64,000 bases of DNA, taken from Tepidanaerobacteraceae bacterium. GTDB lineage: Bacteria > Bacillota > Thermosediminibacteria > Thermosediminibacterales > Tepidanaerobacteraceae. Made by a program: the position numbers and the translations under genes. The notes under the pieces were generated by a model, which saw nothing but the letters and a program-made list of their open reading frames with translations, had not been told where the DNA came from and searched no databases. The stretch covers positions 1-64,000 of the forward strand of contig JANLFP010000003.1 of NCBI GenBank assembly GCA_024655905.1. The letters run 5' to 3'. Shown here one piece after another: positions 1 through 19,369 of this stretch; the first letter of the stretch is position 1; every line of letters starts with the position of its first letter.

Positions 1-7
1 AAGGTGA

Positions 8-3000
8 CTTTCAGTCCCCTTGCTTTCGGGTCTTTATTTGGAACCCTTTTCATCTTGCGGGAACACCGTGACGTTCTTGTCCCTTTCAGTCCCCTTGCTT
101 TCGGGTCTTTATTTGGAACTATCCCGACGGTAGTTTTAAACCCGATCAGCCCGTCACCACTTTCAGTCCCCTTGCTTTCGGGTCTTTATTTGGAACACCT
201 TGCGTAAATTTGCCTTATGACCTCCACCGACAGCTTTCAGTCCCCTTGCTTTCGGGTCTTTATTTGGAACAATATAATAATGCAACCTATACACGGAGGT
301 GTAATAGACTTTCAGTCCCCTTGCTTTCGGGTCTTTATTTGGAACCCAATTTTGCTCAATTTTACTTAATAATTGAGCAAAATCTTTCAGTCCCCTTGCT
401 TTCGGGTCTTTATTTGGAACATCCAATAAATAATAATTTTAATGAGGCTGCAGATTTCTTTCAGTCCCCTTGCTTTCGGGTCTTTATTTGGAACGATAAT
501 ATATTAGATTTTATAAAAACACTTCCAATAGAACTTTCAGTCCCCTTGCTTTCGGGTCTTTATTTGGAACACCTTGTAATGTTTGTAACCCTTAAAAACA
601 ACAAAACTTTCAGTCCCCTTGCTTTCGGGTCTTTATTTGGAACGATGAACTTTATCGCTTTTTAGCTGGTCGAGTTGACCTTTCAGTCCCCTTGCTTTCG
701 GGTCTTTATTTGGAACCTCCTTCTCAACACTTAAAATATCCTCATCATGAAATTACTTTCAGTCCCCTTGCTTTCGGGTCTTTATTTGGAACTAAATGGT
801 GTTGCAGTAACACAAAGTGCTCAGGGTGGCTTTCAGTCCCCTTGCTTTCGGGTCTTTATTTGGAACTTGAGATTCTCAACAAATACATAATCAGGAAATG
901 TCTTTCAGTCCCCTTGCTTTCGGGTCTTTATTTGGAACCAAGGATAATGTGTAGTTTGTACAATGTAAAATACGAACTTTCAGTCCCCTTGCTTTCGGGT
1001 CTTTATTTGGAACTATCTACATACGGGGTGTTTCCCCGTGGCTATGGGTACTTTCAGTCCCCTTGCTTTCGGGTCTTTATTTGGAACGAACACGTCCTGC
1101 TCGACACCCTGAGTAGCTCTGCGCCCTTTCAGTCCCCTTGCTTTCGGGTCTTTATTTGGAACAGCTTGAGCAGAAGGCGTATGCGACAACGATAATTGAC
1201 TTTCAGTCCCCTTGCTTTCGGGTCTTTATTTGGAACCCTGCGGATATTCACCGTCTCCACCCGCCCCATCGAGGCTTTCAGTCCCCTTGCTTTCGGGTCT
1301 TTATTTGGAACCCTACAAACCCCCAGTTATGATAACGCTGAGCAAGAATCTTTCAGTCCCCTTGCTTTCGGGTCTTTATTTGGAACCCACTCATCCACCG
1401 GCAGTGGCTGCCCGCTTTGGTAAGCTTTCAGTCCCCTTGCTTTCGGGTCTTTATTTGGAACTTATTTAATTCCTTAAATATCACCTCCGCTTTTTCTTTG
1501 TCTTTCAGTCCCCTTGCTTTCGGGTCTTTATTTGGAACTTCCTTCTTCCTCCGCTCTCTAAGCCTTGGTATTCTTCTTTCAGTCCCCTTGCTTTCGGGTC
1601 TTTATTTGGAACTTCGGTTTTTAGGACCGAATCTGAAACGAATCCAGGACTTTCAGTCCCCTTGCTTTCGGGTCTTTATTTGGAACTTAACAGAAAAAAT
1701 CCATATTATGAAGCACAGCCACAACTTTCAGTCCCCTTGCTTTCGGGTCTTTATTTGGAACAAAAGAGGGAGGTAGAGGAAGATGCCTAAAGCAATATCT
1801 TTCAGTCCCCTTGCTTTCGGGTCTTTATTTGGAACAGCCTCAAAAGCGGCATTTACAGCGGCGTTTTTGCAAACTTTCAGTCCCCTTGCTTTCGGGTCTT
1901 TATTTGGAACTTTGGCAGTAGGTTGTCCGATATGAGGCCACTAATTGACTTTCAGTCCCCTTGCTTTCGGGTCTTTATTTGGAACTCCTTTTTCCAGTTC
2001 GATTTTGGCTCAGTCCGTGAAATACTTTCAGTCCCCTTGCTTTCGGGTCTTTATTTGGAACCCAGGAATAGTAATACGAATCGGGGAAATTGAGGTATTT
2101 TACTTTCAGTCCCCTTGCTTTCGGGTCTTTATTTGGAACTCGATATACCCGGCGGAAAAATCGCCGAGCTCATGTCTTTCAGTCCCCTTGCTTTCGGGTC
2201 TTTATTTGGAACTGTATATGCAGCAAACCCGGTTAAAACTGGGGCTGTTGCTTTCAGTCCCCTTGCTTTCGGGTCTTTATTTGGAACCAAATCATACAAC
2301 AAGTGTTAGGAGGTGGTCAAAATCTTTCAGTCCCCTTGCTTTCGGGTCTTTATTTGGAACTCAATTTCTACGTCCTCCCCGCCATCAAACGGTTGAACTT
2401 TCAGTCCCCTTGCTTTCGGGTCTTTATTTGGAACCTCCTTATTCCAATCATCTTCTTCAAATTCTGCCCTCTTTCAGTCCCCTTGCTTTCGGGTCTTTAT
2501 TTGGAACGCAGGCAGGGCTACGAAGGCAGGACCTTTCCGCAAGACTTTCAGTCCCCTTGCTTTCGGGTCTTTATTTGGAACGCTGCTTGAGTAACATTGC
2601 CACATTTGGCATATGCTTGCCTTTCAGTCCCCTTGCTTTCGGGTCTTTATTTGGAACTGCATTGCATTGTCAAGGTTTATACCTTCTGCTGTCGACTTTC
2701 AGTCCCCTTGCTTTCGGGTCTTTATTTGGAACCTAATGTCCTTTCAGTTCGTAACTGGTTGAACATGTCACTTTCAGTCCCCTTGCTTTCGGGTCTTTAT
2801 TTGGAACTACTCCCGTCAGCATCCTGTTTATTTCTGCCAACGTTTCTTTCAGTCCCCTTGCTTTCGGGTCTTTATTTGGAACCCACATAATTATCCCTCC
2901 TTAAAATGGCGCTTCGTCCTTTCAGTCCCCTTGCTTTCGGGTCTTTATTTGGAACTCCCTACGAGGAATTGAAACAACGTCGAGGTCGTGTGGTCTTTCA

Positions 3001-3328
3001 GTCCCCTTGCTTTCGGGTCTTTATTTGGAACATATATGAGCAGGTTGATTCAGCAACCTAAAGCCTTAGCTTTCAGTCCCCTTGCTTTCGGGTCTTTATT
3101 TGGAACTGTGAAGCTCCCGTCCAGCGTTTCGGCCATGGACTTTACTTTCAGTCCCCTTGCTTTCGGGTCTTTATTTGGAACATAACTAAAAATGGAGATT
3201 TTAAAGCTATAGGCTTTACTTTCAGTCCCCTTGCTTTCGGGTCTTTATTTGGAACGCAAGAACATGCATAGGGTCTATATCCGCAGGGATGCTTTCAGTC
3301 CCCTTGCTTTCGGGTCTTTATTTGGAAC
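8..3328 (-). CRISPR. CRISPR array, 45 repeats and 44 spacers, continuing left of the window
   Basis: A 37-nt repeat occurs 45 times without a visible mismatch. On the plus strand it begins CTTTCAGTCCCC and ends TTATTTGGAAC. The first copy is 8-44, the last 3292-3328. Spacers are 35-41 nt, mostly 37-38. The reverse complement begins GTTCCAAATAAAG and ends GGGGACTGAAAG; a GAAAG/GAAAC end is typical of the 3' (crRNA 5' handle) end of type I repeats. I therefore infer that the array is read on the minus strand, with the leader on the right next to the cas genes and the youngest spacers near 3.3 kb. The 7 bases before the first repeat look like part of a spacer, so the array probably runs off the left edge. 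Peptides read from this region are translations of the repeat, not genes. Confidence 0.98.
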
Positions 3329-3647: not shown

Positions 3648-4565
3648 TTAATGGCAATCGGCATAATATGGGCAGGTATCATAACATTCTTCAGCCAAGC
3701 CGGGATCAATACCTTCAAAAACCATATGCATCCTTTCATCCCTTTCCTCGATAAACCATTCTCGCAGTTCATCATCTATTATATGAAAATCTTTTTCGAT
3801 AATTAATCGGTTGTTTTTAAAATTACCATAAACTATACATCCCACATTTACGGGGAATTCGAATACGCTTTCCATCACCAGTGCATAGCCGGTGGTACAA
3901 AGCCTGTGAAAATCCTTCTTTTTCCCGAATTTCAAATCCACTACCATGGGCTCGGACATGGTGAAAGCATCTGCACTCAAATATTTGCTCAATCCAAGAA
4001 ATGAGCCATCCAATTTTTGTTCCACCACTACCGGCAAGGCCAGGGATATGAGGCTATCTTCATTTATATACGGCTGTCTTGACAATACATCCTGTATTCG
4101 GCTTATTACTTGGCCGTATTCATAATTCCAGATGAAATTAACTTTGTTCTTTGCATCTTCCATTTCTTCCGGCGAAATGAGGTCTTTTCTTCGATCTAAT
4201 GGCGAAAAGTCCACCTTTTTTAATTCCTCGAACACATCATTGCATTTTCCTATACCATTTATGTAGATTAGCCTTTTTGCCTTAATAATGAAATTTACCA
4301 GAGCCTCATGGAATATAACGCCAAGTATCATATCCAAATTTTGTTTGGCTTTAACATTTTCGACTTTCCTTAAATATACATCCCTGCAGGTAGAGCAATA
4401 TTTATTAGCTATTTCATATAGCGGAAGTTTAATATCATAAATTGGTGCCAGGGGCGGTTGATTCCAGTTCCAGCCTCTTAAATCTTCATCTATATGAATT
4501 TTGCGGGATTTGGGGAGATAACCTTTTAATAAGTGCTTTTTTTCTTCGGAATTTAAAAAATACAC
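3648..4565 (-). CDS. csa1: CRISPR-associated protein Csa1 (Cas4-like nuclease)
   Basis: A 305-aa protein of the Csa1 family, a Cas4 relative best known from type I-A loci, thought to help trim and orient prespacers during adaptation. Visible features are an N-terminal YCSTCRDVY block (C57, C60), a PD-(D/E)XK-like VVDLKFGKKKDF motif near residue 210 and a C-terminal cysteine cluster (C294, C298, C304). The last would hold an iron-sulfur cluster together with the N-terminal cysteines. The GTG start follows GAGGTGAT. It is the last gene of the cas operon, 4 bp after cas4 and next to the leader. Finding both Csa1 and Cas4 beside a type I-D effector is unusual. Confidence 0.85.
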   Translation of the reverse strand: MYFLNSEEKKHLLKGYLPKSRKIHIDEDLRGWNWNQPPLAPIYDIKLPLYEIANKYCSTCRDVYLRKVENVKAKQNLDMILGVIFHEALVNFIIKAKRLIYINGIGKCNDVFEELKKVDFSPLDRRKDLISPEEMEDAKNKVNFIWNYEYGQVISRIQDVLSRQPYINEDSLISLALPVVVEQKLDGSFLGLSKYLSADAFTMSEPMVVDLKFGKKKDFHRLCTTGYALVMESVFEFPVNVGCIVYGNFKNNRLIIEKDFHIIDDELREWFIEERDERMHMVFEGIDPGLAEECYDTCPYYADCH

Positions 4566-4569
4566 TTTA

Positions 4570-5181
4570 TCACCTCACGTCTTTGCAGTAATTTTTATAT
4601 TCGCAATCCCAGCAGCGCCTTACGGACCTTGCTTCGGGGAATTTTTCACGTTTTATCATATTATAAATAGCACTTATGACCTTCTTCACATAAATCCTCA
4701 TACTGTCGGTAATGGTTACCACTTGTATATCTTTGTTGGGAATAGTATATATAAATCCGCGTCGGACGGGTTTATTATAATGTTCTTCCAGTAGCATCGC
4801 ATAAGCTACCAGTTGGTACTTATGGTTTTGCTGGATTTGATGAACGGTATTTTTAAACTCCACCGGATAATACTCTTTCAAATTTCCTTTTTTAAACTCG
4901 ATGACCATGTCAATAAGGCCGCTTAATCCCAATCTTTCCGAATAGACCGGTAGATGGAATATCCTTTCCCCTTCTTCAAATCCGTATGAGACGAGCTTTC
5001 TTCTTTTTTCCAGCCTATCTATCTCCAAATGCCGATCTTTCCCATGTTCCATTTTAAATGTAGGTTTTTTATTGACCGGTAAAACATATGTATAATAGAT
5101 GATCCTGGGGCAGTAAACATATTGTTTTATATCAGTTACAGTTAAATTAAACCGATATTCGGAGCTGTTATCCTGGTTCAT
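4570..5181 (-). CDS. cas4: CRISPR-associated exonuclease Cas4
   Basis: A 203-aa Cas4, a RecB-type nuclease that trims prespacers and selects those with a correct PAM before Cas1-Cas2 integration. It has C24 in YCPRIIYY, the nuclease core GLIDMVIEF followed by EYYPVEFKN (acidic residues and the E-x-K lysine), and the C-terminal cluster C190-x2-C193-x5-C199 that completes a 4Fe-4S site. Length is normal. Its start overlaps the end of cas2 by 14 bp, so the two are probably translationally coupled. Family assignment is firm; the enzymatic details are known of the family and not tested here. Confidence 0.93.
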   Translation of the reverse strand: MNQDNSSEYRFNLTVTDIKQYVYCPRIIYYTYVLPVNKKPTFKMEHGKDRHLEIDRLEKRRKLVSYGFEEGERIFHLPVYSERLGLSGLIDMVIEFKKGNLKEYYPVEFKNTVHQIQQNHKYQLVAYAMLLEEHYNKPVRRGFIYTIPNKDIQVVTITDSMRIYVKKVISAIYNMIKREKFPEARSVRRCWDCEYKNYCKDVR

Positions 5182-5437
5182 TTACATGCTCCTCTTCATT
5201 GATGATTGTCTTTCGTAATTGAAAATCTCTATCGCATAAGGGGAATATTTGAATATTACCTGGTTTCATTCCCAGGATTTTTTTAAGCCTCAAACGCAGT
5301 TCTTCTCGGCGGTTATGGTTTATATCTCCCAAAAATGCGCTTTTTTGAATCCTTGTGAGGCCATAATCTTTGCAAGCTTCTCCAACTTTATTCCTTATTT
5401 TGTCGGAAGTTATGTCGAATATAACCAGTGTCTGCAT
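5168..5437 (-). CDS. cas2: CRISPR-associated endoribonuclease Cas2
   Basis: An 89-aa Cas2, the ferredoxin-fold dimer that bridges two Cas1 dimers in the spacer integrase. It opens with MQTLVIFDIT, carrying the conserved Asp at position 8, and contains RIQKSAFLGDI, the usual second strand and turn. Length is typical. It lies 9 bp after cas1 and overlaps cas4, which places it firmly in the adaptation part of the operon. Confidence 0.93.
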   Translation of the reverse strand: MQTLVIFDITSDKIRNKVGEACKDYGLTRIQKSAFLGDINHNRREELRLRLKKILGMKPGNIQIFPLCDRDFQLRKTIINEEEHVNEPG

Positions 5438-5446
5438 ATCATAACC

Positions 5447-6454
5447 CTACCATTTGCCTACAAAGGCCTTATATTTACTTTCACCCCGCAGGAATGTAGC
5501 TATATGTCGGGCCTGCTTCTGAATGATGGATTTTAAAGTAAACCTCTTACCATCAAAAGTTTCTACCGATTCCAGCCTTTCTTTAAATTTTTCAATCAAC
5601 GTTTTCCTGGTGGTATCGGTAAGCTTGCCATCTTTTATCTCGATTTCGGTTCCTTTTTGGATTATGGCGATTACTACCCTATCCACCACTTGCTGCCGGA
5701 ACTCTTCGGTTACATCAAGTACCAAAGAAGGCTTGCCTGGCCTGTCCACATGCATAAATCCGGCAAAGGGGTCAAGTCCTGCCAGGACCAATGCTCCCCA
5801 TACCTGGGAATAAAGCATGCCATAGCCGTAATTTAGTGCGGAATTTACCGGGTCCTGAGCTCCCCGGTGCTCTCTACCGTTAAAGTCCTGTTTATCCGCA
5901 AAAATGACTCCCACCATTTCCCAATATATATCGGCAGCCCTGCCTTCTATGGATAAAAACTGTGGCCTTATATCATCGATTTTGTCCGCATCTTGCTGGA
6001 AAAGCTCTTTTATATGATTTTCCATTTTTGAAATTCCATCATATATTTGTCTATAAACCTCCGGATGGGTTTCCTTTCTATGGCGAGCAAAATATTTTAA
6101 GACATTTTGCTGGTTTTTTATCTTGCCTTTTATTATTTCTCTAGTGAGCTCTACTCCCCGCTTGTCGTTATAAGCAGCAAGTTGTTCCCTGCGGGTCATT
6201 ACCGTCCCTGTCAGATTTGGCGAAGATATCTGGGCATAAGGCTGACCGTTGAATGTCAAAAAATTTATCTGGATGCCCCGCTCCATGCATTCCTGAATTA
6301 CATCGGTTGTGATAGAAACCCCTGAAGATGTTATAGTTATTTGTGATATATCAAAAAGCGGAGTTTCCTGCACCACCTCACCTTTTTTCCTTATTATAAG
6401 CCGCTCGCTTTTTTTGCCGAGAGAAACGCCGAAGTCGTCGATGATTATGTCCAT
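5447..6454 (-). CDS. cas1: CRISPR-associated integrase Cas1
   Basis: A 335-aa Cas1, the metal-dependent integrase that inserts new spacers at the leader end. Catalytic residues are visible: E170 in SIEGRAADIYW, H235 in GFMHVDRPGKPSLVLDVTEEFR, and D247/E250 in the same block. Length and the whole all-alpha C-terminal domain are normal. It is the first adaptation gene after the effector genes, from which it is separated by a 70-bp gap containing a 9-bp hairpin. The ATG start is supported by the good N-terminal match (MDIIIDDFGVSLGKKSERLIIR). Confidence 0.96.
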   Translation of the reverse strand: MDIIIDDFGVSLGKKSERLIIRKKGEVVQETPLFDISQITITSSGVSITTDVIQECMERGIQINFLTFNGQPYAQISSPNLTGTVMTRREQLAAYNDKRGVELTREIIKGKIKNQQNVLKYFARHRKETHPEVYRQIYDGISKMENHIKELFQQDADKIDDIRPQFLSIEGRAADIYWEMVGVIFADKQDFNGREHRGAQDPVNSALNYGYGMLYSQVWGALVLAGLDPFAGFMHVDRPGKPSLVLDVTEEFRQQVVDRVVIAIIQKGTEIEIKDGKLTDTTRKTLIEKFKERLESVETFDGKRFTLKSIIQKQARHIATFLRGESKYKAFVGKW

Positions 6455-6524: not shown

Positions 6525-7265
6525 TCACAGTAATATTTCTTTAGGAACATAGTCGATAGGATAAGAAAATTGTTTGTCTCCAAAATTGCAGTTAAATATC
6601 TCTTTGTTGTAATATCCGCTGATTAATAGATACCGCATTGTGATGGCATGAATATTATATTCTGAAAAATATATAATGTCATCCCGAGCCACTTGTGTTG
6701 GTACAATCTTGCCACTATTTAAAATTTCACAAAACATTACTTCTGAAAGATCCGTTATTTGAAACATGGTCCTTTTTTTGCCCATTAAATATATCGAACC
6801 CTTATTATAACTTTGAAGCAATCTTTTATCAGCAGAAACCCCATAGGTTACAATATAATTATTCGGCAAAATAGTCTCCATGGAACCATAGGTCGGCGAT
6901 GACTTGCGGTTTTTACCGCCACCTGTCCCCGGATAATCTTCATCCAGAACATTAAACATATTAACATCGATAGTCGTCTTATTTTTCGTCAAAAACTTAT
7001 CATGTATTTTATATACAAACATTCCGGGTGAAAACCATATTGGAAAATTTTTAATATCATAGGTCGAAATAAAATCGTATTCATCCGATTTTAAATCAAT
7101 GTATTTCGGTTCTCGCGTTATTTCTCTTGTCAATCCTGCATAAAGGGCTTCCGAAGTCAAAAAAAGATTTGTTTTATATTTCGACCCGAAATCTGAGCTT
7201 ATGGTTAAAAATCTCCCGCAGTTACGGAGCTCAAACCTTCTACAATAAATGTTCATTATACTCAC
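6525..7265 (-). CDS. csc1: Type I-D Cascade subunit Csc1 (Cas5-like)
   Basis: A 246-aa protein placed directly after csc2 with a 4-bp overlap, the normal position of Csc1. Csc1 is the Cas5-type RAMP subunit that caps the 5' handle of the crRNA in the type I-D complex. The sequence is diverged. I recognise the general Csc1 layout, with a conserved core near YLMGKKRTMFQITDLSE (about residues 155-172) and an N-terminal beta-rich region. The glycine-rich PGTGGGKNRKSSP loop near 112-124 could be a RAMP-type RNA-contacting loop (inference). Assignment rests on both sequence and position. Confidence 0.78.
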   Translation of the reverse strand: MSIMNIYCRRFELRNCGRFLTISSDFGSKYKTNLFLTSEALYAGLTREITREPKYIDLKSDEYDFISTYDIKNFPIWFSPGMFVYKIHDKFLTKNKTTIDVNMFNVLDEDYPGTGGGKNRKSSPTYGSMETILPNNYIVTYGVSADKRLLQSYNKGSIYLMGKKRTMFQITDLSEVMFCEILNSGKIVPTQVARDDIIYFSEYNIHAITMRYLLISGYYNKEIFNCNFGDKQFSYPIDYVPKEILL

Positions 7266-8239
7266 CCTTTTAGTATATCAAAATATTTTTTGAACTCCTG
7301 GATAAGATTTTCCGTCATTTGATCGATCTCCCCTCCGAAGACTGTGACAGGTTCCGAAGAATTACCTTCAAATTCGACTCCAGGAGAGGTTGCGTTAAAT
7401 TTGGTTCTGATTTTATCTATAGAATAATCCGGGCCGGCCCATTCAAGCATATCCAGAACAGAGAAACGGGGATAGCCGGTGGAAACAGCCAAAAATTCAG
7501 TATCAAATTTACCATGGTTGGCCGAATATTTGCCGTATCCATGCTGATCAGCTATTTTCACTGCCTTTATGTAACCTATGACGTCAAGAAATGTCGAGTT
7601 TTCAATTATGGTTATAAATGGGAAGTGTATCCCCGCTTTTACATATTCATATTGATGATAAGAGTCGGATCCTCTCTTCTTATTTAAGTCTTCAGATACC
7701 GTGTTACCTATAGCCATTCCCTCATCACTGCCCTCCATGGCTACCGCAAGTTCGGTTGGTTCTATAGAATAAGTATCGAAATATCTTATTCTGGAAAAGA
7801 CCGCACCCTTCCCTGCTTCTAAACCGCCAAAAAGTGAGCAGTTCCAGCATGTCAAGCATAATCCGTCAGGAATAATGCAGCCGCCTTCTTTCCCGAAATA
7901 TTTTTTAAAAGCTTCATCCCATGCCATGTCACTATTGGCCTCCAACAATTCCCTGAACATAGACATGTGGGCTCGTCTTTCTATGCCTTTAAGTTTTCGG
8001 CCAATAAACTCAGCTCTATTTGAATCTAATAAATCCACTTTATCGACAAATGTATCGGTGGAATAGCCCTCGTGGGATACAGGCAAAAACCGTGAAGCAG
8101 TCGTTTTTATACCGACTATAGTTGCTACTTTTTTTACCATGGAGGCTTTCACGACTTTTTTCCCTTTTTCAAGAGAAATAGGTTCAAGGACATCTTTGAT
8201 ATCGGATAACTGGCTTTTAAACATTTCAAAATTATTCAT
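7262..8239 (-). CDS. csc2: Type I-D Cascade backbone subunit Csc2 (Cas7-like)
   Basis: A 325-aa Csc2, the Cas7-type protein that polymerises along the crRNA to form the I-D backbone. Family landmarks are TTASRFLPVSHEGYSTDTF near the N-terminus (about 47-65), the cysteine motif DGLCLTCWNCSLFGG near residue 130, and SRIRYFDTYSIEP further on. Length is typical. It overlaps the upstream small gene by 8 bp and csc1 by 4 bp, so all three are probably coupled. This is the clearest marker that the locus is type I-D. Confidence 0.92.
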   Translation of the reverse strand: MNNFEMFKSQLSDIKDVLEPISLEKGKKVVKASMVKKVATIVGIKTTASRFLPVSHEGYSTDTFVDKVDLLDSNRAEFIGRKLKGIERRAHMSMFRELLEANSDMAWDEAFKKYFGKEGGCIIPDGLCLTCWNCSLFGGLEAGKGAVFSRIRYFDTYSIEPTELAVAMEGSDEGMAIGNTVSEDLNKKRGSDSYHQYEYVKAGIHFPFITIIENSTFLDVIGYIKAVKIADQHGYGKYSANHGKFDTEFLAVSTGYPRFSVLDMLEWAGPDYSIDKIRTKFNATSPGVEFEGNSSEPVTVFGGEIDQMTENLIQEFKKYFDILKG

Positions 8240-8876
8240 TATTATTGACCTCCTCTACATTTTCAGTAGGTTTTTCATCTAAAACATTTTCATAATACTT
8301 TTTGGTATCGATAAATTTACGTTTTGCGTCTTTAACAATGTTTTCCCATTCACCATTAGAAAATTTGATTTGTAAATCTTTAACCCTTTCATCTCCTTCA
8401 ATAATATTTTCAAAGTTTTCAATGCCATAATTTATATCTTTTCCTTTATCTTTCAGTAAATCTACTACAATCATGGATAATTCTCTTCTAGGATATAGAT
8501 AACCGAAAATCCTGGCATAGAGGCTTCCTCGTAAATGCTGAATTAGTATCTTTTTGCTTTTCCCCTGAAAAAATTCCGGGTTTTTATCTATCCATTTTTC
8601 CAAACTTTTTAATACCGGAAAGTATTTTTCCTTTTTATAATTGGATTCATCGCCGGGAGTATCCCTTAAAAGTTTGCTTTCCCATTCACTGAATGCAATT
8701 TTGGGATCCTCATACCTTTGAAGATAACCGAAAAATAATCTAGGATATTTTTCTAATTTGGTAGGAGTTGATTCTTTTGACCTCAAAGATATGGGTAGAT
8801 GGCCTAAAGTATCTATGGTTTGAAAAATCAAATTACAAAACTCATTTACTTTAATTTCATCCAACATCACACTCAT
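8232..8876 (-). CDS. Probable separate type I-D small subunit (Cas11d-like)
   Basis: A 214-aa, highly charged, mostly helical-looking protein without a motif I can name. It sits 4 bp after cas10d and overlaps csc2 by 8 bp. In described type I-D systems the small subunit Cas11d is made by internal translation of the 3' part of cas10d. Here cas10d is short (711 aa) and this extra gene follows it, so the simplest reading is that the C-terminal Cas11 domain has become its own gene. This is inferred from order, size and character, not from recognised homology. The C-terminus is acidic and low-complexity (ENVEEVNNNE). Confidence 0.55.
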   Translation of the reverse strand: MSVMLDEIKVNEFCNLIFQTIDTLGHLPISLRSKESTPTKLEKYPRLFFGYLQRYEDPKIAFSEWESKLLRDTPGDESNYKKEKYFPVLKSLEKWIDKNPEFFQGKSKKILIQHLRGSLYARIFGYLYPRRELSMIVVDLLKDKGKDINYGIENFENIIEGDERVKDLQIKFSNGEWENIVKDAKRKFIDTKKYYENVLDEKPTENVEEVNNNE

Positions 8877-8880
8877 AATC

Positions 8881-11016
8881 TTACCTCCCTTGGTTTATTT
8901 TTTGATATTCCTTACATTTTAAGAAAAGATTAAAATACTCCATTAAATTTGGTTGCCTATTGATACCGTCAAAAATCACATTATATTTATCTTCGCTCTC
9001 TGAGGATAATACTTTGGAATGCCTCATCACCTCCGATAATGTTATCATTGGTTCATCTACCATCCTTTCTGACAGCATCATCTTTTTAATGAATCTTTTG
9101 TCTTCATTCCATCTTACCACCTTTTGGCTGAAACCTGCAAAAGCTTCATAATAATTGATAACTTCATCAGCGCTGTATTTCTCATCTCTGACATAGAAAG
9201 TATCGGTTGAAAAGTTAGCCTGATCAAGTGATGGTAAAGTCAAATAATAATAGGGGCCATCACAGCCACAGAGCTTTCGCAGAAATGCCAGCAGTGTCAA
9301 TACAGTAATCCTGCTATTGTTAAAACGTTCCTGAATGTAATTATGGGATTTTTTATTTACTGTATTTTTAAACTCCGGCAAAATAAAAAGCATCAGCCTG
9401 TAATCTCCTAAACCAATACTGAAAACATAATTTTCGGCGACATCTATATCTATATCCGACTCAGACAATATATCGATTGCCGGATCTAAAACGGGATCAA
9501 TCCTATTATTTAGCAACTTTCTTAAATTGTTTGTAATAATTTCACTAAGTCTTGTTTTTTCTTCAGCCAGTCCTTCAAGTTCTGTTTTTTGCATTTGTAA
9601 TTCATGGCGCTTTTTCTCTGATACACTCTCAAGCTTTTTTAACAAGTCCTTCATATCACTATTTATTTTAGCCAGAGAAAATCTTGCTTCTTTTTGTTGC
9701 TTTATTAAACTCAGGGACTTTTTTAACGAATCGGCGATAGTCTTTACTTCATTATCATCATGGCGCCCGTAATGAAAGATCATACTGCCTTGTTGGGGAA
9801 CAAAGGCCAAACTGCCTGCAGTATTACCTACTAGTTTCGTAATGAGATATGATTGAATACAACATTTAATGCAGATTTTTATTTCATTTTTGACATCTTT
9901 ATTAACTATCTGATTATGGAACTTACCTACATCTTCGCCCATGATTATGTGATTTTCAGTCAATCTTGCTCCGTTAGCCCCACAGCAGCGGCAAAAAGTT
10001 TTGCAATCCGATTCCCTTTTATCATTAAATATAATCAAACCCATTTGAGTCTGGTTTAATAGTTCTCTTACCGTTTCCTGTGGATTTAATGATAATGCTT
10101 TCTCTTTTGCGTATTTCATATTCCATTCATCGGGATCGGTGGAAGCTAATTTTTCGTATGCATCAAGGGTTTTAATGAAAAATCTTTTTAATTTATCCGG
10201 CGAATATTTTTCTTTGCTCATACTGTCTTTTATATCTTCTGCAAAAGTTTTTAATCCCTTTTTATTGGAAGTATCATAAACACTATCCAGATTTAATGCT
10301 TGTTTTAGTTCCTTCTCATCAAGACCTGTTTCATTTTTATAAGAACTCACTGCCCGTGCCATCAAAAAGTAAGGGCCTTGAAATTCACTACCATCTTTGG
10401 ATAAAAAGAATGACATGTTTGCAGTTATCTTAGTTGGATTAGATTGAAAGTCGAATTCCTCTATCCTTTTACGCAAATGCTGGCGAGCAATAGTACCTAA
10501 TTTATTAACATATATTCTGGGAATGGCAAATATGGGAAAAGCCTCTATATTATTTTTATGGAATTCGAGTAGCTTTTTAAATTCACCATATATCCCCTTT
10601 TCTTCATTTCTATCGCTGAAATAAAGATCTTCCAAATTATCTTCCAGAGTGCGCAAATAGGCTTCTTTCAGTTCCTCAATAGTTTTATCGGTAAACCAGA
10701 GATAATAAAAATTTTCAATGTCGTTTGCTACCATTGAAATGGGACCCAAATCATTTTCTTTGCCGGCAAGAAGGATATTCTTGCTTAAAAAAGAATTTAA
10801 CAATACACTGCCCATAAAAACTTCTTCCCTCATAGTTACAGGAGAATAAAACCTGAGTAAAATCAGTTTTTTATCTTCAATAGGAAATTCATAATATATT
10901 GAACCTTCCAATATGTGATTTAAAATTTCTTCATCGGATATATTGCCGGTGATACTATTATTTTTTAGGAAATTTCTAATCTCATTTTGAACAACCGCTT
11001 GAAAAGAATATGCCAT
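8881..11016 (-). CDS. cas10d: Type I-D large subunit Cas10d (Csc3) without HD domain
   Basis: A 711-aa Cas10d/Csc3, the large subunit that recognises the PAM and anchors the I-D complex. A zinc-binding region is seen near 340-347 (CKTFCRCCG) and 380-385 (ICIKCC). A strongly charged coiled-coil stretch covers about 430-500. The C-terminal part includes a CGCDGPYYYLTLPS core. No GGDD motif is present (IGLGDYRLML in the equivalent area), so cyclic oligoadenylate synthesis is not expected. The N-terminus has no HD nuclease, which family members normally carry; that domain is encoded by the preceding gene. The ATG overlaps the HD gene stop as TGATG, indicating tight coupling. Confidence 0.85.
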   Translation of the reverse strand: MAYSFQAVVQNEIRNFLKNNSITGNISDEEILNHILEGSIYYEFPIEDKKLILLRFYSPVTMREEVFMGSVLLNSFLSKNILLAGKENDLGPISMVANDIENFYYLWFTDKTIEELKEAYLRTLEDNLEDLYFSDRNEEKGIYGEFKKLLEFHKNNIEAFPIFAIPRIYVNKLGTIARQHLRKRIEEFDFQSNPTKITANMSFFLSKDGSEFQGPYFLMARAVSSYKNETGLDEKELKQALNLDSVYDTSNKKGLKTFAEDIKDSMSKEKYSPDKLKRFFIKTLDAYEKLASTDPDEWNMKYAKEKALSLNPQETVRELLNQTQMGLIIFNDKRESDCKTFCRCCGANGARLTENHIIMGEDVGKFHNQIVNKDVKNEIKICIKCCIQSYLITKLVGNTAGSLAFVPQQGSMIFHYGRHDDNEVKTIADSLKKSLSLIKQQKEARFSLAKINSDMKDLLKKLESVSEKKRHELQMQKTELEGLAEEKTRLSEIITNNLRKLLNNRIDPVLDPAIDILSESDIDIDVAENYVFSIGLGDYRLMLFILPEFKNTVNKKSHNYIQERFNNSRITVLTLLAFLRKLCGCDGPYYYLTLPSLDQANFSTDTFYVRDEKYSADEVINYYEAFAGFSQKVVRWNEDKRFIKKMMLSERMVDEPMITLSEVMRHSKVLSSESEDKYNVIFDGINRQPNLMEYFNLFLKCKEYQKINQGR

Positions 11017-11768
11017 CAATCCACACCTCCCATCAATAACTCCAGAAGTTCTTTTATTCCCCTGTTACTTCTTGGGTCGTCTTTATTCAATGCCATTTCT
11101 AAATTATCTGCCTCCTCTATTAATTTATCCAGCAACTGACCATATGAAGCCGTTTCAGAAATGAGATTCCTATAATCTATACCCTTTTCATGACAAAAGG
11201 AATGAATTAGATCCGATACCATTACAAGACCCCCAAATGGGTGAAATAATAACAATAAATCAACCAAAGTTATACGCTTAACCTCATTAATGGTTCTAGT
11301 AGTCCACTCTCTTCGTATGAGCCATTTGTCTCCATAATTCTTGGTGGATTCATATGACATGTAAAAAAGCCCGTGATGACTGACTGCAAAGGCTAATACC
11401 ATGTCTAAATCGATAGGATCGGTTATTTTATAGGAGAATGCCGAAAATAATTCTTTTATTATTTCATCCTGACCGTCCCTTAAAACATCGATATATTCCA
11501 GGGTGCTGGCTTCATGTTTTACCCGTTTCGACGGCAATGGATCACCTTTGATAACAGCTTGTAGCATTGCTTGAAAATCCGAGTTTAGCTTACCCAGGTC
11601 ATGAGCAAATGTAGAAAATATTAAAGTATCCCTTTTTTCTTTGGGATAAGTTTTCCCGAATCGGTCCAATATATAAAGAGCTATTTCCGTGGCACCTGCG
11701 ACATGATCATATAATTTCAATTTTCTTGTAGATTTGCCATAACATTGTTTAAACAGTTCGATTATCAT
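11016..11768 (-). CDS. cas3'': Stand-alone HD nuclease (Cas3''-type)
   Basis: A 250-aa HD-family protein, predicted to be the metal-dependent DNA nuclease of the complex. Candidate metal ligands are H22, H56-D57 (FAHDLGKLN), H85 (KHEAST) and H131-H132 (SHHG). It is encoded between the helicase cas3' (14 bp gap) and cas10d (stop/start overlap). In usual type I-D systems this HD domain forms the N-terminus of Cas10d, so the gene looks like a fission product, or an ancestral unfused form. Cas3'' from other subtypes is an alternative origin, but the position before cas10d favours the former. Confidence 0.85.
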   Translation of the reverse strand: MIIELFKQCYGKSTRKLKLYDHVAGATEIALYILDRFGKTYPKEKRDTLIFSTFAHDLGKLNSDFQAMLQAVIKGDPLPSKRVKHEASTLEYIDVLRDGQDEIIKELFSAFSYKITDPIDLDMVLAFAVSHHGLFYMSYESTKNYGDKWLIRREWTTRTINEVKRITLVDLLLLFHPFGGLVMVSDLIHSFCHEKGIDYRNLISETASYGQLLDKLIEEADNLEMALNKDDPRSNRGIKELLELLMGGVD

Positions 11769-11782
11769 TTAAGCCACCTCTA

Positions 11783-14590
11783 TTATTTAGAGCTTAAAAG
11801 TTTCTTATATAGGGCAAGGCAGGCGCCCTGAATATTATCTAATAAAACCATGTCGTGGCCATTTGGGCTTCTACCTTTATAATCTAGATCATAATATATC
11901 TCTTCAAAGTCCGATAACTTTAGACTTTCCAAGCCCTTAATATCAGGAGTTTCAGGGAAAATAAGGCAAAATTGGTCCGGCAGGATTATCGGTTCTCCGT
12001 ATTTATCGCATACTTCTTCGAGAGTACCCTCTTCATCACCCAGAATTTTTCGCTTTAAATAAATATCTCCAAATATCAAGACGGGATAGATTAGATTTGG
12101 AATTGATCTATAAAATTGTTTTATTTGTTTATATGCCGTTAAGCAGCATTCTTTACCTACAATAATATCAAAATTATCTTTATTTAATATAATGACTGCC
12201 TTACCTTCCTCAAGGGTTTTTTCTACATCTACAAAAACCTGATACTTTCTTTTTTCATAAATCAAACTTGTAAAATAAGTATCGGCTTTTGCCATCTCAA
12301 ACCCTGAATCGACTACTTCCAGTTCTTGAGCAGGTAAGAATTGTAATAATTGAAAAACATTTTTAGTAACCCCTTCATCTTTTAAACCGATGGAAGGCAT
12401 AGTACCCCTTAACCCATAGAGCAGATTTATCTGAGCCTGCTCTATTTTATCCGCAAAATTTATGGCAGCCTGTAAAATATGACTTTCTTTATTTAAGACG
12501 TCCCCGATTAACCCCAATTGCCGATTTATAAGCACAAAGCTTGATTCAGAAAGCATTGAATTAGCCAAACTAATGCGATTCTTGAATATTTTGGTAATAA
12601 TTTTCGAAAAATCTTCCCGCAATAAAGCTTCTTTTAAACCTATCTCATCTTTTAAATCTGAAAACAATCCGCCATCTACTAAAACCCAGCAACAAGCATA
12701 TTCCGAGGATCTGCCCACCCGGCCGAACCTTTGAAGAAATGAACTTGCCTCACATTTTTCCGTTATCAATAAATCCGCTGAAAAGTCAATCCCCACTTCT
12801 ACTGCTGAAGTTGAAATAAGAACAGCTTTTTTAAGATCATCAAAAAGGTTTATCAATCCATCTCTTGATGGTTTTGACATGCTTCCGGAATAAACAATAA
12901 CCGGATATTCAGTATTTTCTATAAAACCTATATGATTCATATCAATTTGTCTGCAAAAATCCATGTCGTTTTTTACTACACCTTTTAATGCGGAATATAT
13001 TGTTTCGTATTCTTCCTTAAAATAGGACTTGAGCCACTTTAAATATACATATTGATTATTCTTTTTAGGAAAACTCCCTTTATAATTAATAATCGAATCC
13101 CTATTAAAACTGAACTTTTCCAAAAAACGTTTTTTAATATCCTCAACTATTTCAGGATCCATATAGCCTATGATCTCATCAATTATTTTTAAAGAAGGAT
13201 AATGTATATGAACTATTTTAGAAGAATCAATATCGTTTTCCAATTTATCGAGCAGGATATTAAAAACATCCTGAAAGATTTCTTTCCACTCAAAATAATC
13301 CTTTTCTAAATTAATATCGTAATTTTCTTTCGGTAAAATAAATGTTATTAATTTTTTTAGTAGTATACTTCTTCTCTCAATATTTTTTAAGATTATTTTT
13401 AGGGATACTGGACTGCTAAAATCTTTATTTTCTTCGAGATTTTTCTTAAAGGTAAAATATAATACCTGGATTACTTTTCCCTTATATTTCATTAAAATAT
13501 CTCGAATGACATTGAAAACTTCCTGTGGATCGGTTTGCACCTCTACTTCTTTGAATTCTTCTAATTTATATCTTATTTCATCCATATCTGCGCTATATAA
13601 TTTTTCAAGTGTCCTATCAGATACGCCGAATTTCCTTAAAGCGTTTTCTAATATAGATTTTTTTACTCTGCCAAACTGTAAATATTGTTCGGGTGTAAAA
13701 ACATTTTCAGATTCAGATATTTTACCGGCAATATCAAAAAATAACCTGTGAGCCATGGCGGCACTATTGCATATTACCAGAACCTTTTTATATTCACTTA
13801 TTATTGCTTTTTTAATCAGGTTTTTATATTCGATATTTTTTTCTTTCGGGGATGAATTAAAAAAAGAAACATCTACACTTCGACATTTCGATCGGCCATT
13901 TATGATCTTTCCATGATTAATTGAAAAGATTTCTTCTCTCGGGGTAGCCGTAAGAATATGTATGTGAAAAGCTTTAGACATAAATTTCTTTTGTAATATT
14001 TCGATCCGTTCAAAAAACAACTTCAAATTCTGTACGGTCAACCCACTGAATATATGAGCTTCATCGATTACAAATTCATCAACCTGACACAAACCGTAAA
14101 TTAAAACAGAGTTGTACTTTATGTTTTTTCTAAAAAACCAATAAATAGCATCAGGAGTGGCAACAATAATCTTTTTTGATAAGTTGGATATAAGTTGACT
14201 CCTTGTCATACCGCCACGGATATAACCAATCTTATCTTCCATACCTGTTAATTTCCCTAATTCCAATAAAACGCTCTGCTGATCTTCCAACAATGCGATT
14301 GTTGGGTATAAAAACATTACTTTATTGATTTCCTTACGTAATAACTTTGTGAAAATCGGTATGGCGACCGCCAGTGTCTTTCCTGCTGCAGTACCTGCCA
14401 CCATTATAACGTTATGCCCTTCTTTGATATATTTAAATGCTTGGGCCTGGTGTTCATATGGATATAAATCAGGTATATTGGTTTTTGTATATATGTAATT
14501 TTGAAAGAGAATAAGTTCATCTTTTGGGACACTTTTTGCAATATCCGGTGGCTTGTTATTAACTTTAATGTTAAAATACTGCTCTAACAT
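11783..14590 (-). CDS. cas3': CRISPR-associated helicase Cas3' (type I-D)
   Basis: A superfamily 2 helicase of about 935 aa without an HD domain, predicted to unwind target DNA after Cascade binding. Motifs: Q-motif region YEHQAQAFKYI, Walker A GTAAGKT near residue 70, DEAH (FVIDEAHIFSG) near 177, TATPRE, and motif VI QRFGRVGRS. Two starts are possible: TTG at 14599 or ATG at 14590, and I prefer the ATG. The middle (roughly 270-520) is a long lysine-rich insertion between the two RecA domains. Base composition is AT-rich like the rest of the operon. Confidence 0.9.
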   Translation of the reverse strand: MLEQYFNIKVNNKPPDIAKSVPKDELILFQNYIYTKTNIPDLYPYEHQAQAFKYIKEGHNVIMVAGTAAGKTLAVAIPIFTKLLRKEINKVMFLYPTIALLEDQQSVLLELGKLTGMEDKIGYIRGGMTRSQLISNLSKKIIVATPDAIYWFFRKNIKYNSVLIYGLCQVDEFVIDEAHIFSGLTVQNLKLFFERIEILQKKFMSKAFHIHILTATPREEIFSINHGKIINGRSKCRSVDVSFFNSSPKEKNIEYKNLIKKAIISEYKKVLVICNSAAMAHRLFFDIAGKISESENVFTPEQYLQFGRVKKSILENALRKFGVSDRTLEKLYSADMDEIRYKLEEFKEVEVQTDPQEVFNVIRDILMKYKGKVIQVLYFTFKKNLEENKDFSSPVSLKIILKNIERRSILLKKLITFILPKENYDINLEKDYFEWKEIFQDVFNILLDKLENDIDSSKIVHIHYPSLKIIDEIIGYMDPEIVEDIKKRFLEKFSFNRDSIINYKGSFPKKNNQYVYLKWLKSYFKEEYETIYSALKGVVKNDMDFCRQIDMNHIGFIENTEYPVIVYSGSMSKPSRDGLINLFDDLKKAVLISTSAVEVGIDFSADLLITEKCEASSFLQRFGRVGRSSEYACCWVLVDGGLFSDLKDEIGLKEALLREDFSKIITKIFKNRISLANSMLSESSFVLINRQLGLIGDVLNKESHILQAAINFADKIEQAQINLLYGLRGTMPSIGLKDEGVTKNVFQLLQFLPAQELEVVDSGFEMAKADTYFTSLIYEKRKYQVFVDVEKTLEEGKAVIILNKDNFDIIVGKECCLTAYKQIKQFYRSIPNLIYPVLIFGDIYLKRKILGDEEGTLEEVCDKYGEPIILPDQFCLIFPETPDIKGLESLKLSDFEEIYYDLDYKGRSPNGHDMVLLDNIQGACLALYKKLLSSK

Positions 14591-14682
14591 ATTTATCAAC
14601 CCGATTTCACTCTATTTTTCAGATATCCTTATAATATTTTACTGCCAATCCTACCCATCCTATGGGTATTATAAAAATTTCA

Positions 14683-15675
14683 TCAAGATTTTTTCATCAC
14701 ATATTTCCCCAACCCAAAAGTAATATTTTTCCCGACATGTATGTATTCGCCCAGGATAATAAGGGGAAGATATGGTACAAGGTTGCCTTCATATGTGATG
14801 TTTCCGACTAGGCCGCCCATTTTCATTCTATTTTGCTGGCGGCTGGAATATCTTTCCCAGTCTTCCCAGACTGTAAAATCGTTTTTTATAATCACTTTAG
14901 CAGCGGTTTCGACAAATGTTTTATAATCGATACTTATCTTCGTATCATTATGAAAATAAGACAGATTTGAAAACCGCCGAAGAAGATTACCGATAAGGAT
15001 ATGAAATTCTAATTTTGTTGCAAAATGGTTATCATATTTTATCCTGGTGGGAGTCTGAAAAGATAAGGTTATTTGGTCCGGTGAGTGGGCCCCGTTATCC
15101 GCTTGGTTTAATATGTCTTCCCCGGTTATTGTTATGTCACAATTGCGGACTTTTTTATCTTCATCAGAGTATATGAGATGCTCAACTTTTTTGAAGGGAT
15201 TTTGGCCTAATACCCGCCGAAGGACATAGGGCTTCCTTCCACGGCCTATTCCCATGTTGCCCAATTCGACAAAGGTGACCAGAAAATACGGCAGATATTC
15301 TATGGCTTTTCCGATAAGGATCAGTTCAAAGCGTATTTTTTCACCGGGCTTATAAAATGTCTTTTTTTCCGGCGGAGGCTCAATGACATAAGGCCTTGGA
15401 ACTTCCTCAAAATTGTTCAGCACTTCCGACCTGTGTCCGGGAGACGTTTCGAAAATATAGCTGTAAGGGCATTGTTCTTTCAGGAGGCAATTGGTGCAGT
15501 CGGTCTTTTTCATTGTGCAGACCATACTCCTGAAAGCATGTCCAAAACCTCCCCTGAAAGTAGAGCCTTTATATGTGGGAAGGTCCAGACCATCCTTTCC
15601 AGATTCTATTTCAAGCATATATTTTGCCAGGCGGAAATTTTTCATGAAATCCCTACAAGAATCTATCTTTGACAA
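14683..15675 (-). CDS. cas6: CRISPR pre-crRNA endoribonuclease Cas6
   Basis: A 330-aa Cas6-type RAMP, which cuts the repeats of the precursor to give mature crRNAs. It shows an N-terminal Cys cluster (C53, C60, C63, C69, ending KEQCPYSYIFET) seen in the larger Cas6 branch. There is also an internal glycine-rich GNMGIGRGRKPY and the C-terminal glycine-rich signature GKNITFGLGKY. The start is TTG preceded by GGAG at 8 bases. It is the first gene of the operon and is followed by cas3' after 83-92 bp. Its own 5' region holds the repeats described under the control region. Confidence 0.88.
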   Translation of the reverse strand: MSKIDSCRDFMKNFRLAKYMLEIESGKDGLDLPTYKGSTFRGGFGHAFRSMVCTMKKTDCTNCLLKEQCPYSYIFETSPGHRSEVLNNFEEVPRPYVIEPPPEKKTFYKPGEKIRFELILIGKAIEYLPYFLVTFVELGNMGIGRGRKPYVLRRVLGQNPFKKVEHLIYSDEDKKVRNCDITITGEDILNQADNGAHSPDQITLSFQTPTRIKYDNHFATKLEFHILIGNLLRRFSNLSYFHNDTKISIDYKTFVETAAKVIIKNDFTVWEDWERYSSRQQNRMKMGGLVGNITYEGNLVPYLPLIILGEYIHVGKNITFGLGKYVMKKS

Positions 15676-15873: not shown

Positions 15874-15921
15874 ATTATAAAACAAGACATACCCATATCA
15901 CGGGTATGTTGAAAAATATAT
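15874..15921. repeat. Hairpin repeat, copy 1
   Basis: A roughly 48-bp element with the stem CATACCC...GGGTATG followed by TTGAAAAAT. A near-identical copy in the same orientation lies at 19322-19369 (about 43 of 47 positions agree). The two flank the helicase gene and the nuclease remnant. They could be ends or leaders of a lost insertion element. Confidence 0.75.
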
Positions 15922-19321: not shown

Positions 19322-19369
19322 ATTATAAGACAAAACATACCCAAATCCCGGGTATGTTGAAAAATTTTA
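19322..19369. repeat. Hairpin repeat, copy 2
   Basis: Same element as at 15874-15921, same orientation, with stem CATACCC/GGGTATG and the trailing TTGAAAAAT. The surrounding 19091-19428 holds no gene that I can recognise. Confidence 0.75.

What the first reader, a model, noticed from the sequence alone, without database searches (positions are those of the whole stretch)
6525..15675. Type I-D CRISPR effector split into extra genes: HD nuclease, Cas10d core and a separate small protein
Seen: Csc1 and Csc2 identify type I-D, but cas10d is only about 711 aa and lacks an HD domain. A complete HD gene (H22, H56-D57, H85, H131-H132) lies directly before it with stop/start overlap, and a 214-aa gene lies directly after it. 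Known: in described type I-D systems the HD nuclease is the N-terminus of Cas10d, and the small subunit Cas11d comes from internal translation of the cas10d 3' end. Inference: here one polypeptide has become three cotranscribed genes, or this is an unfused ancestral form. That could allow separate control of DNA cutting and of small-subunit supply.
Basis: partly seen in the sequence, partly recalled or inferred. Interest (0 to 1): 0.82.

Follow-up and report, generated by a model that had tools for sequence, protein, structure and literature searches.

The report
Type I-D CRISPR with unfused subunits
This is a type I-D CRISPR-Cas immune operon in which the DNA-cutting HD nuclease and the small subunit, which published type I-D systems keep inside one large protein, are separate genes; the same unfused layout recurs across several bacterial phyla and in archaea, so it is a real, old and little-described variant rather than an accident of this genome.

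Summary
The operon runs cas6, cas3', HD, cas10d, small gene, csc2, csc1, cas1, cas2, cas4, csa1, then a CRISPR array. The 214-aa protein matches a PADLOC small-subunit profile over its full length (PDLC01499 'Cas11d, CAS-I-D', E 2.5e-42). Its AlphaFold model's best PDB match is the thumb/Cas11 end of Sulfolobus Cas10d (6thh, Z 6.5; moderate). In two relatives (Rubrobacter, Poribacteria) the same protein is fused to the C-terminus of Cas10d, keeping an internal start and Shine-Dalgarno site. About 20 loci from six bacterial and archaeal groups share the layout. Wherever both genes could be read, HD directly follows cas3'; in three loci it lies away from cas10d. So HD is best read as a Cas3'' paired with Cas3', as in type I-A, while Cas10d plus free Cas11 resembles type III. 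Csc2 places the group on a deep branch apart from classic I-D. Whether unfused is ancestral or derived stays open. The component profiles already exist in PADLOC-DB; the held papers describe only HD-fused Cas10d and internally translated Cas11d for I-D. Verdict: new variant of a known kind, likely a working DNA-targeting system.

The parts
14683..15675 (-). cas6, crRNA-processing RNase (330 aa)
   Evidence: PADLOC Cas6 1.8e-103; Pfam CRISPR_Cas6 2.9e-20
11783..14599 (-). cas3' helicase without an HD domain (938 aa)
   Evidence: PADLOC PDLC01533 3e-198; TIGR03158 type I-D Cas3' 70.8 bits, over its cut-off of 69.1
11016..11768 (-). stand-alone HD nuclease, cas3'' (250 aa)
   Evidence: TIGR01596 Cas3'' 5.7e-10 (39.5 bits, just under its cut-off of 43.45), PF18019 Cas3_HD 5.4e-07, over cut-off; H22, H56-D57, K60, H85, H131-H132, D186 invariant in 10 rows; profile match to the N-terminus of fused Cas10d
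8881..11019 (-). cas10d large subunit without HD and without a recognisable C-terminal Cas11 domain (711-712 aa)
   Evidence: PADLOC PDLC01506 Cas10_Id 3.1e-128; AlphaFold model pLDDT 83.5; three best PDB matches are Cmr2/Cas10, weak E 0.02-0.06
8232..8876 (-). separate small-subunit gene, Cas11d (214 aa)
   Evidence: PADLOC PDLC01499 Cas11d 2.5e-42; AlphaFold pLDDT 89.8; best PDB match 6thh Cas10d 672-844, Z 6.5; fused to Cas10d in L019 and L020
7262..8239 (-). csc2 / cas7d backbone subunit (325 aa)
   Evidence: TIGR03157 39.2 bits, cut-off 38; PADLOC Cas7d 3.3e-12
6525..7265 (-). csc1 / cas5d (246 aa)
   Evidence: PADLOC PDLC01497 Cas5d CAS-I-D 3e-61
5447..6454 (-). cas1 (335 aa)
   Evidence: TIGR00287 8.2e-86
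5168..5437 (-). cas2 (89 aa)
   Evidence: position and size; homologous gene at the same place in relatives; not itself scanned against a library
4570..5181 (-). cas4 (203 aa)
   Evidence: TIGR00372 1.7e-35
3648..4565 (-). second cas4, Csa1 type (305 aa)
   Evidence: TIGR01896 8.6e-64, PF06023 1.1e-79
8..3328 (.). CRISPR array: 45 exact 37-nt repeats, spacers 35-41 nt (mean 37.6)

Best explanation
[quoted passage not shown] Csc2 (backbone), Csc1 (foot), Cas10d (large subunit, PAM reading, dead polymerase fold) and several copies of the 214-aa Cas11d on the belly assemble on a crRNA made by Cas6. On target DNA the R-loop forms, with Cas11d expected to steady the displaced strand. The separate HD nuclease acts with the Cas3' helicase as a split Cas3 (Cas3'/Cas3''), as in type I-A: it nicks and then shreds the target. 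Shown here: gene content and order, intact HD motif, small-subunit identity by profile and by natural fusion with moderate support from fold, strong separate ribosome sites, conservation across phyla. Inferred: complex assembly, PAM reading, pairing of HD with Cas3', DNA cleavage. Separate genes mean that Cas11d and HD amounts are set by their own ribosome sites rather than by internal starts or a fixed 1:1 fusion.
For: Family profiles for the subunits. Small subunit: full-length PDLC01499 match; model pLDDT 89.8 whose top PDB hit is Cas10d 672-844, Z 6.5 against 4.7 for the next row; in L019 and L020 the same protein is the C-terminus of Cas10d with SD and ATG kept at the homologous start. 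HD: catalytic residues invariant, unpermuted order; separate gene directly after cas3' in all 14 loci measured, while cas10d is 8-11 kb away in L029 and L013. Cas10d: Cmr2-like fold, Zn-finger cysteines C343, C346, C383, C386 invariant, no GGDD at the palm hairpin. One clade in the Csc2 tree, 100/100.
Against: No wet-lab data. The small subunit has no significant sequence match to the C-terminus of fused Cas10d, Foldseek alone finds nothing, and Z 6.5 is modest for a helical protein. Physical pairing of HD with Cas3' is read only from gene order. No spacer target was found in the phage collection, so DNA targeting and PAM are untested.
Confidence: 0.72

Rival explanations
1. Derived fission: the ancestor had the classic HD-Cas10d-Cas11 protein, which broke into three genes in this lineage.
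For: HD shows significant profile similarity to the N-terminus of fused Cas10d (94-96% probability). Stop and start codons of neighbours overlap. HD-fused forms with a separate small gene exist (L011, L046, L047).
Against: HD is next to cas3', not tied to cas10d, in L013, L029 and L018. HD's PADLOC matches are all Cas3 families, none to Cas10d. Separate small genes occur on both sides of the Csc2 tree, which favours an old separate state if they are homologous, which is not shown.
Confidence: 0.25
2. The HD protein is a standing subunit of the Cas10d complex, taking the place of the fused domain, rather than a partner recruited together with Cas3'.
For: cas10d starts on the HD stop codon in the window and often elsewhere; in type I-A Cas3'' is described as part of the assembly in an inhibited state (PMC11127173).
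Against: HD follows cas3' even where cas10d is far away.
Confidence: 0.3
3. The 214-aa protein is an accessory or regulatory protein unrelated to Cas11.
For: No sequence similarity to fused Cas10d C-termini or to the other stand-alone I-D small subunit; Foldseek blank.
Against: Fused to the Cas10d C-terminus in two relatives; curated profile calls it the I-D small subunit; best structural match is the thumb/Cas11 end of Cas10d; found, separate or fused, in every locus of the clade where that region is covered, except the cut-off fragment L030.
Confidence: 0.06
4. Artefact: frameshifts or assembly errors split an ordinary cas10d.
For: L021 does show a broken HD frame.
Against: Same separate genes in independent assemblies from many phyla, each with its own SD site.
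Confidence: 0.01

Closest known systems
Classic type I-D (Synechocystis pSYSA, Sulfolobus islandicus)
   Same: csc1, csc2, cas10d, HD-less cas3', cas6, Cas1-Cas2-Cas4; unpermuted HD; similar spacer length
   Different: There HD is the N-terminus of Cas10d and Cas11d is translated from inside cas10d (PMC10212523, PMC7689449); here both are separate genes, and the large subunit shows no match to TIGR03174
I-D variant with HD-fused Cas10d and separate small gene (PADLOC PDLC01192 with PDLC01194; L011, L046, L047)
   Same: stand-alone small gene between cas10d and csc2; Cas1-Cas2-Cas4-Csa1 module in L046
   Different: HD still fused to Cas10d; small subunits of the two variants share no detectable sequence similarity
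Type I-A
   Same: cas3' and cas3'' as separate genes; Csa1-type second Cas4
   Different: Large subunit is Cas10d-like, not Cas8a; backbone is Csc2/Csc1
Type III-B (Cmr)
   Same: Cas10-like large subunit with a separate small subunit; weak fold match to Cmr2
   Different: No GGDD palm motif, unpermuted separate HD, has a Cas3' helicase

Membership tests
Type I-D, by signature genes | Csc2 (Cas7d) | tested here: met
   TIGR03157 39.2 bits over cut-off 38
Type I-D, by signature genes | Csc1 (Cas5d) | tested here: met
   PDLC01497 3e-61
Type I-D, by signature genes | Cas10d large subunit | tested here: met
   PDLC01506 3.1e-128; but no match to TIGR03174 Csc3
Type I-D, by signature genes | Cas3' helicase without HD | tested here: met
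   TIGR03158 over cut-off; no HD in P0010
Canonical fused I-D architecture | HD nuclease fused to the N-terminus of Cas10d | tested here: not met
   HD is a separate gene in the window and in every relative of the clade where it could be read
Canonical fused I-D architecture | Cas11d encoded inside cas10d with an internal start | tested here: not met
   Separate gene 8232-8876 with its own SD; internal-start form only in L019 and L020
Cas11 small subunit | Helical fold like the Cas10d Cas11 domain | tested here: inconclusive
   Best PDB match 6thh 672-844, Z 6.5, 117 residues; Foldseek finds none
Cas11 small subunit | Placement in the belly filament of the complex | not testable with these tools
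   needs purified complex
Type III | Active GGDD palm and permuted HD in Cas10 | tested here: not met
   no GGDD at the palm hairpin; HD separate, H22 before H56-D57
Type I-A | Separate cas3' and cas3'' | tested here: met
Type I-A | Cas8a large subunit | tested here: not met
   large subunit matches Cas10_Id, no Cas8a match

The most novel reading that the evidence does not exclude
[quoted passage not shown] the fused Cas10d and internally translated Cas11d of textbook I-D would then be later fusions, repeated at least once within this clade.
Probability: 0.33. Interest if true: 0.72.

Novelty: new variant of a known kind. Interest (0 to 1): 0.48.

Why it matters
Published reviews treat fused HD and internally translated Cas11d as general traits of type I-D. 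[quoted passage not shown] Separate Cas11 genes may also ease use in eukaryotes, where internal translation of Cas11 is a concern (PMC10212523).

Tried and rejected
Sequence search of the PDB with small-subunit, Cas10d and HD profiles: no relevant hit. Foldseek with the small-subunit model: nothing significant. VIA-align with the whole Cas10d model: list filled by a coiled-coil insert at 421-507, uninformative. Profile comparison of the small subunit with fused Cas10d C-termini and with the other stand-alone small subunit: no match. First thought that L018 and L029 lack HD and carry a transposon: wrong; the upstream genes are type III modules, and HD lies just before them. Spacer match to phages: none. 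Viral contigs hold no relative of Csc2 or Cas10d found by these scans. Held papers describe no such split I-D layout; the 2015 and 2020 classification papers and McBride 2020 are not held, so prior description there cannot be excluded.

Full report
Observation. The eleven genes lie on the minus strand in the order cas6, cas3', HD, cas10d, small gene, csc2, csc1, cas1, cas2, cas4, csa1, followed by an array of 45 exact 37-nt repeats. HD residues H22, H56, D57, K60, H85, H131, H132 and D186 are invariant in ten aligned rows.

Identity of the small gene. NCBIfam has no model for it and Pfam gave only one insignificant match, but PADLOC-DB matches it full length to PDLC01499, 'Cas11d, CAS-I-D; effector_SS' (2.5e-42), and matches cas10d to an HD-less 670-position profile, PDLC01506 (3.1e-128). 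So the pieces were already catalogued as I-D parts. The AlphaFold model (pLDDT 89.8) is all helical. Among the chains Foldseek ranks highest in the PDB, its best VIA match is S. islandicus Cas10d residues 672-844, Z 6.5 over 117 residues, ahead of chorismate mutase at 4.7. That stretch is the thumb and Cas11 end of Cas10d (thumb 624-719, Cas11 720-847; PMC7689449). Z 6.5 is modest for helices, so the natural fusions carry more weight: in Rubrobacter taiwanensis (L019) and a Poribacteria bin (L020) the small protein is joined to the end of Cas10d, and the Shine-Dalgarno site and ATG remain at the homologous point (AGGAGGTG, spacing 6; AGGAGG, spacing 8). Near relative L021 has the same motif with a stop codon between the genes. 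A separate gene and an internal-start gene are thus only a small step apart in this clade. On the Csc2 and Cas10d trees the two fused loci sit among unfused ones; one or two fusion events are both possible (AU p 0.066).

Large subunit. The model (pLDDT 83.5) gives Cmr2, the type III-B Cas10, as its three best Foldseek matches, though weakly (E 0.02-0.06). Four Zn-finger cysteines are invariant and the palm hairpin lacks GGDD. About 95 residues with four helices follow the palm, the length of the Sulfolobus thumb alone, consistent with the Cas11 domain being the separate gene (inference). A coiled-coil insert at 421-507 is missing in L024 and L027.

HD nuclease. Its closest profiles are Cas3 HD families, and it shows profile similarity to the N-terminus of fused Cas10d (94-96% probability). 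In 14 of 14 loci measured it follows cas3' directly, usually overlapping it. In L013 the cas3'-HD pair sits at the far end of the operon from cas10d; in L029 (III-B) and L018 (III-C-like) a type III module lies between HD and cas10d. Hence HD is best described as Cas3'' of a split Cas3, as in type I-A, where the two are separate genes (PMC11127173).

Spread. A Csc2 profile scan of GTDB contigs found 18 related loci from Bacillota, Chloroflexota, Thermodesulfobacteriota, Actinomycetota, Poribacteria and methanogens. In a sample of 299 genomes of the window's phylum, the small-subunit profile rings in five: the window's own, three with the full unfused operon, and one with only a decayed remnant. 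In the same sample, the HD-fused variant with a separate small gene (G028, G131, G086) and the classic form (G178, G237, G285) were each read in three genomes. The Csc2 tree separates the unfused clade (19 rows, 100/100) from HD-fused and classic I-D by a very long branch. The root is unknown, so ancestry is open.

Published view. [quoted passage not shown] a 2024 review says the same of the fusion (PMC11127173). The main text of the 2025 classification does not describe the unfused form in the passages found (PMC12669027). Earlier classification papers are not held, so description there is possible.

How it likely works. Cas6 makes crRNA; Csc2, Csc1, Cas10d and free Cas11d build the complex; the R-loop forms on dsDNA; HD and Cas3' then nick and degrade. 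Conserved basic residues in the small subunit (K43, R46, R71, K109, R122 in 16 of 16) fit strand or backbone contact. All of these functional steps are inference from homologous systems; none was tested here.

Noticed in passing
window 1-3328 and L069 (G000 contig C17): The array runs to the contig end; contig C17 begins with 49 more exact copies of the same repeat in opposite orientation, and the two contig ends share AAGGTGA, so this is probably one array of about 95 repeats. Beyond it lies a type I-B locus (Cas8b, Cas7b, Cas5b, Cas3, Cas4, Cas1), so I-D and I-B appear to flank one array.
   Followed up: partly
L011, L046, L047: Another Bacillota I-D variant: HD fused to Cas10d (914-952 aa) but small subunit a separate gene (PADLOC PDLC01194), with no detectable similarity to the window's small subunit.
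   Followed up: partly
L011 about 10070-10290 (G028:C15:21069-21285): Decayed remnant of the unfused-type small-subunit gene with a stop, between cas6 and an HD-fused I-D operon: looks like one I-D variant replaced another.
   Followed up: partly
L018 1321-6303; L029 389-6751: Type III-C-like (Methanosaeta) and III-B (Chloroflexi) modules sit inside the I-D operon, between HD and cas10d.
   Followed up: partly
window 9500-9760 (Cas10d residues about 421-507): Coiled-coil insert between palm strands of Cas10d, of varying length in relatives and absent in L024 and L027; role unknown.
   Followed up: no
window 14636-14679, 15874-15917, 19322-19365: A 44-nt sequence with an inner inverted repeat recurs three times near the operon; the copies at 15874 and 19322 are 91% alike, the one at 14636 is 64%.
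   Followed up: no
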